A DNA stretch of 64,000 nucleotides from Halobacteroides halobius DSM 5150 (GTDB taxonomy: Bacteria; Bacillota; Halanaerobiia; Halobacteroidales; Halobacteroidaceae): positions 124,001 through 188,000 of the forward strand of contig NC_019978.1 in the NCBI RefSeq assembly GCF_000328625.1, written 5' to 3'. Shown piece after piece: positions 15,861 through 61,336 of the stretch. The stretch's first letter is position 1. Each line of letters starts with the position of its first letter. Both the position numbers and the translations under genes were made by a program. The notes under the pieces were generated by a model. The model made no database searches. It was not told where the DNA came from and saw nothing but the letters and a program-made list of their open reading frames with translations.

Positions 15861-15978
15861 GATGCTTATTATGTGACTGACGGATTAGGATGGGATTAAC
15901 CATCAAGGAGCATAATAAGGAGAATTGCCGACCGTCTGGGCAGATAGTTATAATTGCTATCTGTTCAGGCGGTTTTTT
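15861..15978 (+). promoter_or_regulatory. ZTP (pfl) riboswitch with terminator
   Basis: P1 forms from TTATTATG (15866-15873) and CATAATAA (15911-15918). The core has the conserved GTGACTGACGG and CAAGGAG elements and the pseudoknot/P3 block GCCGACCGTCTGGGC (15927-15941). ACCGTCTGGGCAGATAG (15931-15947) also pairs with CTATCTGTTCAGGCGGT (15957-15973) before a T run, so terminator and ligand-bound P3 compete. ZTP/ZMP signals low 10-formyl-THF, and the gene downstream is fhs, a typical regulon member. Confidence 0.93.
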
Positions 15979-17735: not shown

Positions 17736-17764
17736 TTGCAATTTTAAATTTTAACTAGTATAAT
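17736..17764 (+). promoter_or_regulatory. Promoter of the pantothenate operon
   Basis: TTGCAA (17736-17741), 17 bases, TATAAT (17759-17764), beginning just after the fhs stop. Confidence 0.6.
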
Positions 17765-17774
17765 GAAATGAAAT

Positions 17775-17896
17775 TGAATAATATCCGCTTGGATCTATTA
17801 ATAGACTGAGACGGGGAATAGCTTATGTAGTGGGCCAACTATGCCTATCTATATCTATAGATAACTCCTTTCCTGTCTAGGTTAGGAGTTTTTTCT
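17775..17896 (+). promoter_or_regulatory. Structured leader of panB (probable pan motif) and terminator
   Basis: After the promoter an RNA of ~120 bases folds into local helices, for example CTATT/AATAG around GACTGAGACGGGG and GTAGT/ACTAT around GGGCCA. It ends in AACTCCT (17863-17869) and AGGAGTT (17884-17890) followed by T residues, an intrinsic terminator ahead of panB. Structured leaders called the pan motif are known upstream of panB operons in firmicutes; I assign this by position and general form, not by a verified consensus. Confidence 0.6.
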
Positions 17897-47429: not shown

Positions 47430-47669
47430 AGCCAATAGCTAAGATAAGGAGTAGTAAACTAGTTAGCTTTTATGATAGAGAGTAAGGCCACAGGCTGAAA
47501 GCCTTATTAAAAGATGCTAGTTGAATGCCCCTTTAAGCTGAGTAGTTGAAGGAACAGTAGACTATTTCGTTTAACCAGCGTTAATGGTTAAAAGTCGGTT
47601 TTATGTTTAACAAACAGAGTGGAACCGCGGGCCTTTCGTCTCTGTAACAAGAGAGGGAAGGTCTTTTTT
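47430..47669 (+). promoter_or_regulatory. T-box riboswitch of the cysE-cysS group
   Basis: The T-box sequence GTGGAACCGCGG (47619-47630) is clear. GGCCTTTCGTCTCT (47630-47643) pairs with AGAGAGGGAAGGTC (47650-47663) before TTTTTT, giving the terminator; the T-box half forms the antiterminator when uncharged tRNA is bound. Stem I includes AAGGC/GCCTT at its apex and AAAG/CTAG helices. TGC at 47526-47528 lies where the specifier is expected and would read tRNA-Cys, consistent with cysE and cysS downstream; the specifier call is inference. Confidence 0.88.
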
Positions 47670-50686: not shown

Positions 50687-53353
50687 GTGTGACTTGTTGC
50701 GATATGAAAAGTATCGCCTAGTTTTGTAGAGTTAATCTGCAATAATTAGAACTAAGAGACTAAACAGTCAAATGATAGAGTAACGTCTTGAAGGGCTGTC
50801 ATTAATGCTCCGAATTGCATTAAGTATATTAAGATACTTAATGTAATAAGCTCGGTGAAGTCAAGGGAAAGTTACCGTAATTATACGAAAGCTACCTCAG
50901 TCAGGTGGTGTAACTGATACCTTGGATGCCTTTAAAATATCTAATGATTAGTATGTACCATGAAGGTACTGACGAACCTCTGAATGTACAGGTCTAGACA
51001 TCTAATAGCTAGAAATAGTTATACCAACAAAGATTGGTATATGTGTGATGAGTAAGATTTGTCGATATGAAAATCGTTATACACTTAAAGGGTGTATATC
51101 CATAATGGAACATATAGGCTTAAAGGAGGAATCTAAGGGTATATATAATAGGTAAGGTCTCTTGGAACAAGGAAAGCTAACAACGCTGAGGGCTTAATCT
51201 CTTTGAAGCGGTGGTATAGAAATGTAATTATAATATACCTTAATGTTAGTGATAGTGTTGGCATGAACCGATAATACTCTAGTAGAATAGAGTTAGGAAT
51301 AGCCAGTAGTCAATAGTTTAAGGTACAAGATATGTCATTTTATCATAAGGTTCTTGTAAGACTAAGAAAGGTGAAGTCTCTGTAAGGAGGTTTTAGCCGA
51401 CTTATGACTGCGTTAGAGAAGAAGCAAGTTGAGAGCAAAAAGAAAAGTAAGTTAAGAAACAACGAATATTATGATACCCAAGAAATTCAGGATATGTTAT
51501 ATGAATATAGTGAGAAGGGTTATAATTTTAAAAGTTTAATGCAACACATTACTTCAAGAAAAAATATACTTTTAGCTTACAGAAATATTAAGAAAAATAC
51601 TGGTAGTAAAACTAGAGGTACTAATAATAAAACCATCAAGGATTTAGAAGAGAAATCTACAGAGGAACTTGTAGAATATGTGAGAAACAGACTTGAGTAT
51701 TATGTACCACAGTCTGTAAGAAGGGTTTATATTCCTAAACCTGATGGTAGGAAAAGACCTTTAGGCATACCCACAATTAAAGATAGACTTATTCAACAAT
51801 GTATTAAACAGGTTTTAGAACCTATCTGTGAAGCTAAATTTCATAACCACAGTTATGGTTTTAGACCTAATAGGTCAACTAAACACGCTATAGCAAGAAT
51901 AATGTATTTGATAAATTTTAGCAAATTACACTATACAGTTGATATAGATATCAAAAGTTTCTTTGATAATGTTGACCATAACAAGTTGAAGAAACAATTG
52001 TGGAGTATGGGAATAAGAGATAAAAAGCTAATCTCTATACTGGGAAATATGCTAGAAGCAAAAATAGAAGGTGAGGGTGTTCCAGAGAAAGGAACACCGC
52101 AAGGTGGAATAATCTCACCTTTGCTTTCTAATATAGTATTAAATGAAATGGATTGGTGGATTTCCAATCAATGGGAAACATTTAAAACAGATTATAAATA
52201 TAATAGAAAAGGCGACAAAATTACAGCCATAAAGAAAACAAATCTAAAAGAAATCTATATTATAAGATATGCAGATGATTTTAAAATAATGTGTAGAGAT
52301 TTTGAAACTGCAAGTAAAATTAAGATAGCTACAATTAAATGGTTAAAAGAAAGATTAAATCTTGAAGTGAGTGAGAAGAAGACGAGTATAACTAATCTTA
52401 AGAAAAATCATACTGAATTTTTGGGGATTAAATTGAAGGTTGTCAAGAAAGGCAATAAATACATTTGCAGGTCAAAAGTAGCCAATGGAGTAAAACCAAA
52501 ATTAATTAATAAATTTAGAAATCAAATACAGCGAATTAGAAGAAAAACTACACCAAAGGAAGTATCTAAGTTAAATTCAATGATATTAGGAATGCAAAAT
52601 TACTACTCTATGGCTACATACGTAAATAAAGATTTCAGTGATATAGCCTTCAAAGTTAACAGAACCTTAAGAAAACGCCTTAGTGAAATATTGAGTGAAA
52701 AAGGTACTGAATCAAAAACTTTCCAGAAATTTTATGGAGAGTATAACTATAAGCCTCATTGTGTAGCTGGAATTAGAATATTTCCAATTGCTGGTGTAAC
52801 ATTTAAAGCTCCAATGAATTTTTCGCAAGAAATATGTGATTACACCAGAATTGGAAGGGAGAAAATACACAAGAAACTTAGAAGTGTATCACCAGTAGTT
52901 TTAAAATATTTAGTTGAAAATCCAGTTAGGGATAAATCAATTAAATATAACGATAACCGAATTGCCAGATATTCTGGACAAAATGGTTGTTGTTTTGTTA
53001 CTGGTATTCCTTTAGGGATTGGAGATATTGAATGTCATCACAAAAGACCTGAAAAAGATGGAGGTAAGGACACTTACAGAAATCTTTGCTTGGTTACTAA
53101 GGATATTCATAAATTGATACACGCTACAAAGAAAAAGACAATAAAACGCTACTATGATAAGGTGAAATGTTACTTTGATGAAAATACCTTAAGTAAGCTC
53201 AACAAACTTCGAACTAAGGCAGGAAATGACTGTATTGAACTATCTTAAACTATGATGGAACGCTCAGTGAGTACGAAAGTCTCATGCTGAGTGTGAAGAG
53301 GGGGAAAAGCTGGAAATAGATAACATTACTATTGAAGGCTTACCTATCTCTAT
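50687..53353 (+). mobile_element. Group II intron inserted in thyX
   Basis: The 5' end is GTGTG, the group II consensus. A complete RT/maturase gene (51404-53248) lies in domain IV. Domain V is seen at 53262-53297 (ACGCTCAG...CTGAGTGT around TACGAAAGT), and domain VI follows, with a candidate branch A at 53346 eight bases from the 3' end. The 3' boundary at 53353 (ending CTAT) was chosen because it restores PIEDARY-ILPLATKTN in frame, which no other nearby site does with an AY end. The ~700 bases before the ORF are domains I-III RNA. All parts look intact, so splicing and mobility are likely. Confidence 0.88.
51404..53248 (+). CDS. ltrA: Group II intron reverse transcriptase/maturase (LtrA-type)
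   Basis: A 614-residue intron-encoded protein. The RT domain (about 60-360) includes RVYIPKPDGRKRPLGIPT, YGFRPNRSTKHA, GTPQGGIISPLLSN and the catalytic YADD (about 289); a maturase X domain follows (380-480). The C-terminal HNH endonuclease has CCFVTG and ECHHKRPEKDGG with NLCLVTKDIHKLIH. All three activities are present without frameshift, so the intron should be capable of retrohoming. RBS GTAAGGAGG lies somewhat far (13 bases) from the ATG. Confidence 0.95.
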   Translation: MTALEKKQVESKKKSKLRNNEYYDTQEIQDMLYEYSEKGYNFKSLMQHITSRKNILLAYRNIKKNTGSKTRGTNNKTIKDLEEKSTEELVEYVRNRLEYYVPQSVRRVYIPKPDGRKRPLGIPTIKDRLIQQCIKQVLEPICEAKFHNHSYGFRPNRSTKHAIARIMYLINFSKLHYTVDIDIKSFFDNVDHNKLKKQLWSMGIRDKKLISILGNMLEAKIEGEGVPEKGTPQGGIISPLLSNIVLNEMDWWISNQWETFKTDYKYNRKGDKITAIKKTNLKEIYIIRYADDFKIMCRDFETASKIKIATIKWLKERLNLEVSEKKTSITNLKKNHTEFLGIKLKVVKKGNKYICRSKVANGVKPKLINKFRNQIQRIRRKTTPKEVSKLNSMILGMQNYYSMATYVNKDFSDIAFKVNRTLRKRLSEILSEKGTESKTFQKFYGEYNYKPHCVAGIRIFPIAGVTFKAPMNFSQEICDYTRIGREKIHKKLRSVSPVVLKYLVENPVRDKSIKYNDNRIARYSGQNGCCFVTGIPLGIGDIECHHKRPEKDGGKDTYRNLCLVTKDIHKLIHATKKKTIKRYYDKVKCYFDENTLSKLNKLRTKAGNDCIELS

Positions 53354-58832: not shown

Positions 58833-59363
58833 ATGAGTGAACGCAATTGGTATGCTATTTATACCTATTCTGGTAATGAAGAACGAGTAAAAGTTAATAT
58901 GACCCAAAGGGTTAAAAGTACTGGGATGGAAGATAAAATCTTTGATATTTTGATTCCTACTGAAGATAAAGTAGAAGTAAAAGACGGTAAGGAGACAGTC
59001 AAGAAGGATGAGATTTTCCCAGGATATGTCCTGGTTCAAATGATTATGGATGATGATTCCTGGTATGTTGTTCGCAATACCCCTGGAGTAATTGGTTTTG
59101 CTAGTGCAGGAACAGACCCAGTGCCTGTTTCTGAGGAAGAAATCCAAAGGATTAAGCAAGATATGGGAATGGAAGAATTAGCTAAAGCCAATACAGATTT
59201 AGAAATAGATCAAAAAGTTAAAGTAACTGATGGTGTATTAGAAGATCATGTTGGTGTAATTAAAGAAATTAATTATGAAACTAAAGAAATGATAGTACAA
59301 GTTTCTATGTTTGGCCGTGAAACTCCAGTTGAACTAGAGTTTGGCCAAGTAGAAAAAGTATAA
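58833..59363 (+). CDS. nusG: Transcription termination/antitermination factor NusG
   Basis: A 176-residue factor. The NGN domain shows WYAIYTYSGNEERV, FPGYVLVQM and VRNTPGVIGFA; the KOW domain (about 122-175, VKVTDGVLEDHVGVIKEINYETKEMIVQVSMFGRETPVELEF) ends it. It links RNA polymerase with ribosome and Rho. Normally rplK follows within ~100 bases; here 548 bases intervene. Confidence 0.97.
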   Translation: MSERNWYAIYTYSGNEERVKVNMTQRVKSTGMEDKIFDILIPTEDKVEVKDGKETVKKDEIFPGYVLVQMIMDDDSWYVVRNTPGVIGFASAGTDPVPVSEEEIQRIKQDMGMEELAKANTDLEIDQKVKVTDGVLEDHVGVIKEINYETKEMIVQVSMFGRETPVELEFGQVEKV

Positions 59364-59389
59364 AGAGCTACAAAATAGGTTGTAAATTA

Positions 59390-59852
59390 CTAATTAATAG
59401 TGTTTAAAGTTAGGTAAAACTGTTTCGTTGCTCTCAAGGTTTAGGGAGTGTAAAGGATAGAAATATCTTTAGCACAATGATTTACGTTATTTGGTTAAAG
59501 AGTTTTTATTAAACTCAACAGTGTATCACACTTTGGAATGTATCCATCAGTTCCAAATCGCAGGCAGAGCCTTGCTCTGTAAACTACTCTGTGGCACTAA
59601 GGAAGAAACCTCGTCTAAGTCTAGTTCTTCTGGATATGAAAAGCTAATACCGAAAGTGCATAAGCCCCATTTCAGGGTATTTTTACCCTGGCTATTGACT
59701 AAATCAGGGAGATAGAAGAAGTGGTTATGTTCTCTATCTAACTTTAAGAGCAAGAATCTATATGATTCTGCGACAAAGAAGGGAATTATCCCGCAAGGGA
59801 GATTGGTTTAAGAGAATCACAAATCCTAGTGGTAAATCATATCCACTAGGTA
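59390..59852 (+). other. Unassigned hairpin-rich region between nusG and rplK
   Basis: No convincing gene is present. The strand contains a series of perfect or near-perfect hairpins: GGAA/TTCC (59535-59554), CAGAG/CTCTG (59565-59579), CAGGGTA/TACCCTG (59673-59690), AGATAGA/TCTATCT (59710-59739), AGAAT/ATTCT (59753-59769), TCCC-GCAA-GGGA with a GNRA loop (59789-59800) and CCTAGTGG/CCACTAGG (59825-59850). Base composition is less AT-rich than neighbouring spacers. The 74-codon frame at 59491 has no ribosome binding site or recognisable family. It may be a structured RNA or the remnant of a mobile element (IS200/IS605-type ends also carry hairpins); nothing decides between these. Confidence 0.55.
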
Positions 59853-59911
59853 ACTATAATGATATTTAGTTGGTTTTAGATTAGATAAGTTAAAACAAGG
59901 AGGTATGACCA

Positions 59912-60337
59912 ATGGCAAAGAAAGTCGTCGGTAAGATTAGTTTACAGATTCCTGCTGGTGAAGCTAGTCCAGCTCCTCCCGTTGGTCCTGCATTAGGACA
60001 GCACGGAATTAATATTATGGGATTTTGTAAAGCATTTAATGCTAAAACTGCTGATCAAGCTGGAAATATTATTCCGGTTGAGATTACAGTTTATGCTGAC
60101 CGTTCTTTTGATTTTATTACTAAAACTCCACCTGCAGCGGATTTATTAAAGAAAGCTGCTGGTCTTGAGACAGCTTCTGGAGAACCTAATGTTAATAAAG
60201 TAGGAACTGTTAGTCTAGATGATGTAAAGGAAATTGCAGAGTTAAAGATGGAAGATTTAAATGCTGCATCTTTGGAATCTGCTATGAGTATGATTAAAGG
60301 TACTGCTCGTAGTATGGGACTTGTTGTAGAAGAATAA
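59912..60337 (+). CDS. rplK: 50S ribosomal protein L11
   Basis: A 141-residue GTPase-centre protein. Shows the conserved N-terminal [24 protein letters not shown] (11-34) and the C-terminal RNA-binding domain with [19 protein letters not shown]. An L1-binding site follows. Confidence 0.97.
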
Positions 60338-61130: not shown

Positions 61131-61154
61131 ATTTTTCGTGATAAAAGAATATAA

Positions 61155-61336
61155 TTCGTAGCCGAAGATAGTAGGTGCTATTAAAGCTTAAATTTATAGC
61201 CTGCCGAGGCCGGTAATAAATCTAAGTTTACGTTTAAGTTTATGGTTTAAGCTAAGCTTAATTTTAGTCTTAAACTTAGTATTTTATTATTACCCCTTGG
61301 TTATTAGAGTCTCCGGCTACGGCGGAGACTCTTTTT
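61155..61336 (+). promoter_or_regulatory. L10 leader with attenuator
   Basis: AGCCGAAGATAGTAGGTGCT (61160-61179) and TAGCCTGCCGAGGC (61197-61210) are the two conserved strands of the L10(L7/L12)4 binding site. A long helix with CTAAGTTTA/TAAACTTAG ends (61222-61279) follows, then the terminator AGAGTCTCCG/CGGAGACTCT (61306-61332) and a T run. Excess L10 complex should favour termination and lower rplJL expression. Confidence 0.88.

What the first reader, a model, noticed from the sequence alone, without database searches (positions are those of the whole stretch)
59364..59911. Unassigned, highly structured 550-base spacer between nusG and rplK
secE-nusG-rplK is normally compact. Here about 550 bases separate nusG and rplK and at least seven clean hairpins follow each other on the + strand, one with a GNRA loop, ending in an 8-bp perfect stem 60 bases before rplK. 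No gene is supported. It could be a structured RNA in a ribosomal protein mRNA, a degraded or non-autonomous transposable element (hairpin ends like IS200/IS605 and possible guide-RNA remnants), or an insertion of unknown type. I do not recognise it as L11 leader or any named RNA.
Basis: partly seen in the sequence, partly recalled or inferred. Interest (0 to 1): 0.72.

Follow-up and report, generated by a model that had tools for sequence, protein, structure and literature searches.

The report
Decayed guide-RNA transposon relic before rplK
The odd 550-base spacer is a worn-out 535-base mobile element that still carries most of a guide RNA of the kind used by IscB (the ancestor of Cas9) but no nuclease gene, and it sits exactly inside the ribosome-binding site of a ribosomal protein gene, a landing place that its whole IscB family, in bacteria and in phages, appears to prefer.

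Summary
In detail: a 548-nt non-coding, structured spacer separates nusG and rplK. It is not a conserved leader: 11 Halanaerobiales relatives have only a compact ..TAAGGAGGTGTAAGAG-ATG junction. The spacer is a 535-bp element (59368-59902) inserted in rplK's Shine-Dalgarno (SD) sequence, GGAG^G. Seven copies lie in this genome: three carry intact iscB (RNA-guided RuvC/HNH nuclease, NCBIfam equivalog, E 7e-86 to 1e-94) directly after the same structured RNA; four, including this one, lack iscB and share another right end. The RNA is a divergent HEARO/omega RNA: 54 consensus pairs, 26 with compensatory changes; Rfam HEARO matches sister-clade loci full length but below threshold, and not this copy. 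The window copy has lost 14 nt holding the 3' strand of the nexus stem, so it is probably a dead guide RNA; two other iscB-less copies keep all 54 pairs and could use IscB in trans. All seven genome copies, and most relatives of this IscB clade (20/29 versus 9/67 in other IscBs), sit in the SD of a downstream gene; orthologous empty sites at two bacterial loci and one phage locus support this. No Y1 transposase exists in this genome. I found no description of SD-targeting by IscB in the searchable papers.

The parts
59368..59902 (+). Whole inserted element: omega RNA part plus right end, no nuclease gene
   Evidence: Dispersed repeat with 6 other copies in the genome; ends fixed by copy comparison, by the empty nusG-rplK junction in 11 relatives and by flank joining
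59364..59367 (+). Left part of the split target, AGAG (GGAG in the other copies); also the 5' bases of omega RNA helix 1
   Evidence: GGAG at this place in all 6 other copies; relatives' empty site TATAAGGAGG; pairs with columns 91-95
59364..59818 (+). Degenerate omega RNA (HEARO-like) scaffold
   Evidence: Aligned with the omega RNAs directly upstream of three iscB genes in the same genome and in two related genera; covarying structure
59448..59475 (+). Helix 3, GUGUAAAGGAUA-GAAA-UAUCUUUAGCAC, with GNRA loop
   Evidence: 11 pairs, 6 with changes on both sides
59672..59673 (+). Point of the 14-nt deletion that removes GACATTGCCTATAG (3' strand of nexus stem and part of central stem)
   Evidence: Alignment A3; window copy keeps 46/54 pairs, 6 lost to this gap; the site matches the HEARO consensus stem
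59673..59777 (+). Optional ~105-nt hairpin module inside the omega RNA, present in 4 of 7 copies
   Evidence: Alignment columns ~388-511; absent from C1603k, C1566k and relatives
59819..59902 (+). Right end type A, shared only by the four iscB-less copies; ends in AAGGAG
   Evidence: Hairpin pattern found at exactly 4 places in the genome
59825..59850 (+). 8-bp perfect right-end hairpin CCTAGTGG..CCACTAGG
59897..59903 (+). Shine-Dalgarno AAGGAGG for rplK, restored by the element's right end; predicted unpaired
   Evidence: Sequence; fold of 59780-59960
59352..59367 (+). Sequence that would be the 5' guide if the RNA were functional (end of nusG); inferred
   Evidence: The IscB omega RNA guide is 5' of the scaffold (PMC9640706, PMC9755519); not tested

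Best explanation
The spacer is a defective, non-autonomous IscB (OMEGA/HEARO) element. It consists of a left end and omega RNA followed directly by a right end, with no iscB gene. It inserted, in this lineage, into the SD sequence of rplK (GTATAAGGAG^G..ATG). SHOWN: dispersed copies, sister copies with intact iscB, conserved RNA structure, empty sites, insertion in the SD, loss of nexus-stem bases in this copy. INFERRED: intact elements make an RNA whose 5' guide is the host sequence left of the element, so that IscB cuts the homologous empty site and the element is copied back or retained. The two undamaged iscB-less copies could borrow IscB from the three iscB loci. The window copy can probably no longer do so, because its nexus stem is gone. 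It is tolerated because the right end puts AAGGAGG back 8 nt before the rplK start codon and because it holds no terminator, so the nusG-rplK operon can still be transcribed and translated.
For: Own-genome DNA search: 7 loci (ends). Three of them carry iscB, NF040563 guided_IscB E 7e-86 to 1e-94, RRXRR + HNH, nearest solved structure HfmIscB 9k2z E 6e-129, with RuvC and HNH catalytic residues invariant. RNA homology and covariation. HEARO RF02033 matches positions 1-211 in the same omega RNA family at L040 (E 2.7e-4), L042 and Staphylococcus phages. The nusG-rplK junction is empty in 11 relatives; the rsmE-mtaB orthologous junction equals the joined flanks of a sister copy. Joined flanks of the six other genome copies restore GGAGG 6-9 nt before ATG (the window copy has drifted to AGAGG). 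Phage JDF86 versus phiSA_BS1 gives a clean filled/empty pair in an SD. SD context 20/29 in the clade versus 9/67 in other IscBs, Fisher p 1.5e-7. Deletion in the window copy. No terminator-like site in the element; SD predicted open.
Against: Rfam HEARO does not match the window copy at E up to 5, nor the intact sister copy C1566k, so the RNA class rests on homology to iscB-adjacent RNAs and on sister clades. No transposase that could move the element is known in this genome or beside other loci of the clade (a motif scan only). Right end A differs from the right end of the iscB-bearing copies, so it is not a simple internal deletion of one of them. Expression and activity are untested.
Confidence: 0.88

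Rival explanations
1. A cis-regulatory leader for rplK-rplA (structured mRNA element controlling the L11 operon).
For: Structured RNA between ribosomal-protein genes; another leader, L10_leader, lies downstream at 61144-61294.
Against: Absent from the nusG-rplK junction in all 11 relatives with a complete junction; copies sit before pfkA, the HU gene, mtaB, a permease and others; no Rfam leader match.
Confidence: 0.03
2. The window copy is still a working trans-acting omega RNA: IscB from other loci uses its nusG-tail guide, with the extra hairpin module replacing the lost nexus strand.
For: Three intact IscB genes in the genome; 46 of 54 pairs kept, and sister copies C407k and C1603k keep all 54.
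Against: The lost GACATTGCC is present in all the other aligned omega RNAs of the order and, with few substitutions, in those of the wider clade and corresponds to the HEARO nexus strand; the left end is also degenerate.
Confidence: 0.08
3. The RNA is domesticated: after loss of iscB, the iscB-less copies were kept as 5' UTR spacers or processing signals that tune expression of rplK, pfkA and the HU gene.
For: Three iscB-less copies of 464-574 bp, all in 5' UTRs of housekeeping genes, all restoring an SD.
Against: iscB-bearing copies have the same kind of position, so insertion preference alone explains it; the window copy shows decay, not conservation.
Confidence: 0.06
4. Degraded IS200/IS605 TnpB element or IStron (group I intron) remnant.
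For: Hairpin near the end; IS605-like arrangement of target motif and right-end motif.
Against: No group I intron match; sister copies carry iscB, not tnpB; the RNA lies 5' of the nuclease gene as in IscB, whereas TnpB guide RNAs lie 3' (own knowledge).
Confidence: 0.02

Closest known systems
IscB / OMEGA systems (e.g. OgeuIscB, HfmIscB) with omega RNA = HEARO (Rfam RF02033)
   Same: RNA directly 5' of a RuvC+HNH nuclease in sister copies; nexus, central and terminal hairpins; guide expected at the 5' end
   Different: Window copy has no nuclease gene, has lost the nexus 3' strand, carries a 105-nt extra module, and falls below Rfam detection; insertion is specific for Shine-Dalgarno sequences
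Stand-alone omega RNAs / non-autonomous IS derivatives (MITE- or PATE-like; own knowledge)
   Same: Right and left ends with RNA but no gene, several copies, helper genes elsewhere in the genome
   Different: Own right-end type not shared with the helper copies; no Y1 transposase anywhere in the genome
IS200/IS605 superfamily (Y1 transposase)
   Same: A short target motif stays left of the element and a similar motif ends the right side (GGAG or GCAG/CTAG/CCAG), with no larger target duplication
   Different: No Y1_Tnp in the genome nor found beside other members of the clade; the motif is the SD core

Membership tests
IscB/OMEGA element | iscB nuclease gene directly downstream of the RNA | tested here: not met
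   Absent in the window copy; present in three sister copies in the same genome
IscB/OMEGA element | RNA homologous to the omega RNA of an iscB locus, with conserved fold | tested here: met
   46 of 54 consensus pairs kept
IscB/OMEGA element | Intact nexus stem and central stem | tested here: not met
   14-nt deletion removes 6 pairs; site mapped on the HEARO consensus
IscB/OMEGA element | RNA-guided cleavage of target next to a TAM | not testable with these tools
   Needs biochemistry
HEARO RNA (RF02033) | Match at the Rfam gathering score | tested here: not met
   No match for window or own sister copies; sub-threshold full-length matches in the same clade
IS200/IS605 | Y1 transposase in the element or the genome | tested here: not met
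   PF01797 absent from the genome
IS200/IS605 | Short target motif left of the element and a related motif at the right end, no larger target duplication | tested here: met
   Flank joining at 9 sites and orthologous empty sites
Ribosomal protein leader | Conserved in synteny upstream of rplK | tested here: not met
Group I intron / IStron | Match to an intron model | tested here: not met

The most novel reading that the evidence does not exclude
A whole clade of IscB elements (Halanaerobiales, Bacillus, Lachnospiraceae, Selenomonas, Staphylococcus phages) is specialised for Shine-Dalgarno sequences: the SD core serves as insertion motif and probably as the target-adjacent motif of IscB, and the element ends rebuild an SD so that the host gene keeps being translated. 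iscB-less omega RNA elements act as satellites that use IscB in trans.
Probability: 0.45. Interest if true: 0.68.

Novelty: new variant of a known kind. Interest (0 to 1): 0.5.

Why it matters
It turns an anonymous spacer in a core ribosomal operon into a fossil of an RNA-guided mobile element, and it shows a simple way in which such elements can land in essential operons without harm: enter the ribosome-binding site and bring a replacement. If the SD is also the IscB recognition motif, every gene start in a low-GC genome is a potential home, which predicts a TAM that can be tested directly, and gives a natural set of iscB-less guide RNAs with which to ask whether IscB serves RNAs in trans.

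Tried and rejected
L11/ribosomal leader: rejected, no synteny conservation. Group I intron/IStron and TnpB RNA: no model match, wrong nuclease. Gene in the spacer (74-aa and 68-aa ORFs): one is open in a second copy too, but the covarying RNA explains the conservation. Phage or plasmid DNA copies of the window sequence: none at blastn level. Plasmid-borne IscB of this clade: none. A Y1 transposase as mover: none in the genome or beside the clade's iscB genes. Papers on SD targeting, phage IscB homing or Halanaerobiales IscB: nothing relevant found in the searchable library; the founding papers (Altae-Tran 2021, Kapitonov 2016) are not held, so statements on stand-alone omega RNAs rest on my own knowledge. 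The folding-energy z-score was not used as evidence for strand because both strands score alike.

Full report
1. Observation. nusG ends at 59363, rplK begins at 59912. The 548-nt spacer has no supported gene and contains the listed hairpins, among them a GAAA-loop stem (59455-59468) and the 8-bp perfect stem at 59825-59850. Folding is better than shuffles on both strands. No Rfam family matches at the gathering score, and nothing meaningful at E up to 5.

2. It is a dispersed repeat. A DNA search of the own genome (2.65 Mb, one contig) gives the window locus and six further loci: C64k (64,736 +), C407k (407,290 +), C1566k (1,566,933 -), C1603k (1,603,887 -), C1917k (1,917,421 -) and a 122-bp mini-copy C2504k (2,504,805 +); left ends. 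Among 60 other genomes, mostly of the same class, only two (same order) have DNA-level relatives; one of them is Fuchsiella alkaliacetigena.

3. Sister copies carry iscB. In C64k, C1566k and C1917k the RNA is followed at once by a 419-435-aa gene, which is NCBIfam 'RNA-guided endonuclease IscB', Pfam RRXRR + HNH, and closest among solved structures to HfmIscB. Catalytic RuvC and HNH residues are invariant. These are the only three iscB genes of the clade in the genome. The window copy, C407k, C1603k and C2504k lack iscB and share another right end with the hairpin CCTAGTGG..CCACTAGG, found at exactly these four places.

4. The RNA is a divergent HEARO/omega RNA. Eleven homologues (six from this genome, three from two related genera, one each from Bacillus and Ectobacillus) give a consensus of 54 pairs, 26 with changes on both sides; 97.7% of cells pair, no shuffle of 500 reaches any of the five measures, and slid controls fall to 36-46%. 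Related omega RNAs match Rfam HEARO over its full length, below threshold: L040 E 2.7e-4 on a 341-nt stretch, L042 and phage loci; one phage record is annotated HEARO by its depositors. Published omega RNA anatomy (guide, guide-adaptor hairpin, nexus stem, central stem, pseudoknot, terminal hairpins) is from PMC9640706; the guide is at the 5' end (PMC9640706, PMC9755519).

5. The window copy is damaged. It keeps 46 of 54 pairs; its 14-nt deletion at 59672/59673 removes GACATTGCCTATAG, that is the 3' strand of the nexus stem and three pairs of the central stem, a stretch kept in all the other aligned omega RNAs of the order and, with few substitutions, in the wider clade. Its left end is degenerate (AGAGCTACAAAATAGG against GGAGCTATGAAACAGC). 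C407k, C1603k and C1566k keep all 54 pairs.

6. Exact insertion site. In 11 relatives nusG and rplK are joined by sequences such as GTATAAGGAGGTGTAAGAG-ATG. Here the same SD is split: GTATAA(A)GAG | 535 bp | GTATGACCA-ATG. The other six copies in this genome give, after joining their flanks, GGAG^G followed 6-9 nt later by ATG. The rsmE-mtaB site is the best check: joined flanks read gatttaggag^GTTAATT-ATG, and relatives have GACTTAGGAGGATAATT-ATG or GATTTAGGAGGTCAATA-ATG at the same place. In Staphylococcus Twortvirinae phages the same IscB clade occurs; JDF86 has the element where phiSA_BS1 has ATAAAGGAGAAAAGACTATT-ATGG.

7. Generality. Among 29 loci of this IscB clade that could be scored, 20 have an SD plus ATG within 70 nt right of iscB, against 9 of 67 for more distant IscBs from viral contigs (p 1.5e-7). 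The three iscB copies of this genome count as failures under that rule although their joined flanks are SDs, so the rule is conservative for the clade; related loci are not independent, so the p-value is optimistic. Left junctions read GGA or GGAG in nearly all (by eye). Exceptions exist: L051, L061, L066 and L069 are not clear.

8. Mechanism. Shown: repeat nature, iscB in sister copies, RNA structure, empty sites, SD position, damage. From established knowledge: IscB cuts DNA matched to the 5' guide next to a TAM. Inferred: the guide is the host sequence left of the element, cutting of the empty allele favours the element, and IscB could serve the two intact iscB-less copies in trans. The arrangement of a target motif left of the element and a related motif at its right end (GGAG, GCAG, CTAG, CCAG) is that of IS200/IS605 elements, but no Y1 transposase exists in this genome or was seen beside other clade members (the single hit is an IS605 that interrupts an iscB in the relative G011), so the mover is unknown. 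Known TAMs of other IscBs are purine-rich (NNRR in PMC9640706, NTAAA in PMC13180657), which makes an SD-like TAM plausible but untested.

9. Effect on the host. The right end restores AAGGAGG eight nt before the rplK start; it is predicted unpaired and the element has no terminator-like site. The insertion is therefore expected to be nearly neutral.

10. Verdict. The spacer is an iscB-less, damaged omega RNA element: ordinary as a fossil, more interesting for the SD specificity of its clade, which I did not find described in the library available here.

Noticed in passing
window 59673-59777 and the same place in L012, L013, L014: A ~105-nt hairpin module sits inside the omega RNA right after the nexus strand in 4 of 7 copies; two sequence variants are distributed across copies in a way that suggests gene conversion between elements.
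   Followed up: partly
L012, L013, L015, L016 (omega RNA alignment columns 142-179 of A3): A second optional module (CCTTCGTGTCC..GGACACTTCGTAACAAAAGGCG) is present in some omega RNAs and absent in others, including the window copy.
   Followed up: no
L017:3310-3431: A 122-bp mini-element (left end joined to right end, no omega RNA core) in the SD of an amino-acid permease gene.
   Followed up: partly
L023 (relative G011): An iscB of the same family is interrupted by an IS605-like element with its own Y1 transposase and TnpB-like ORF.
   Followed up: no
L060, L061, L062, L146 (Staphylococcus Twortvirinae phages): Large Staphylococcus phages carry IscB of this clade with presence/absence between close relatives; L061 and L146 sit near a resolvase gene start without a clean SD insertion.
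   Followed up: partly
L147:1503-2200 (phage RSM-J51Sa): An element with omega RNA and a truncated iscB, again between AAAAAGGA and AAAAAGGAGGGTAAATAATGG: a parallel case of iscB loss.
   Followed up: partly
L013:3393-4178: The insertion in the rsmE stop region makes the rsmE frame read into the element, giving an altered C-terminus (..GDLGAMKQLINS).
   Followed up: no
window 50747-50936 and 53258-53353: Two group II intron matches (Rfam) within 3 kb.
   Followed up: no
window 15863-15948, 17745-17818, 47432-47646, 61144-61294: ZTP riboswitch, borderline pan motif, T-box leader and L10 leader matches (Rfam).
   Followed up: no
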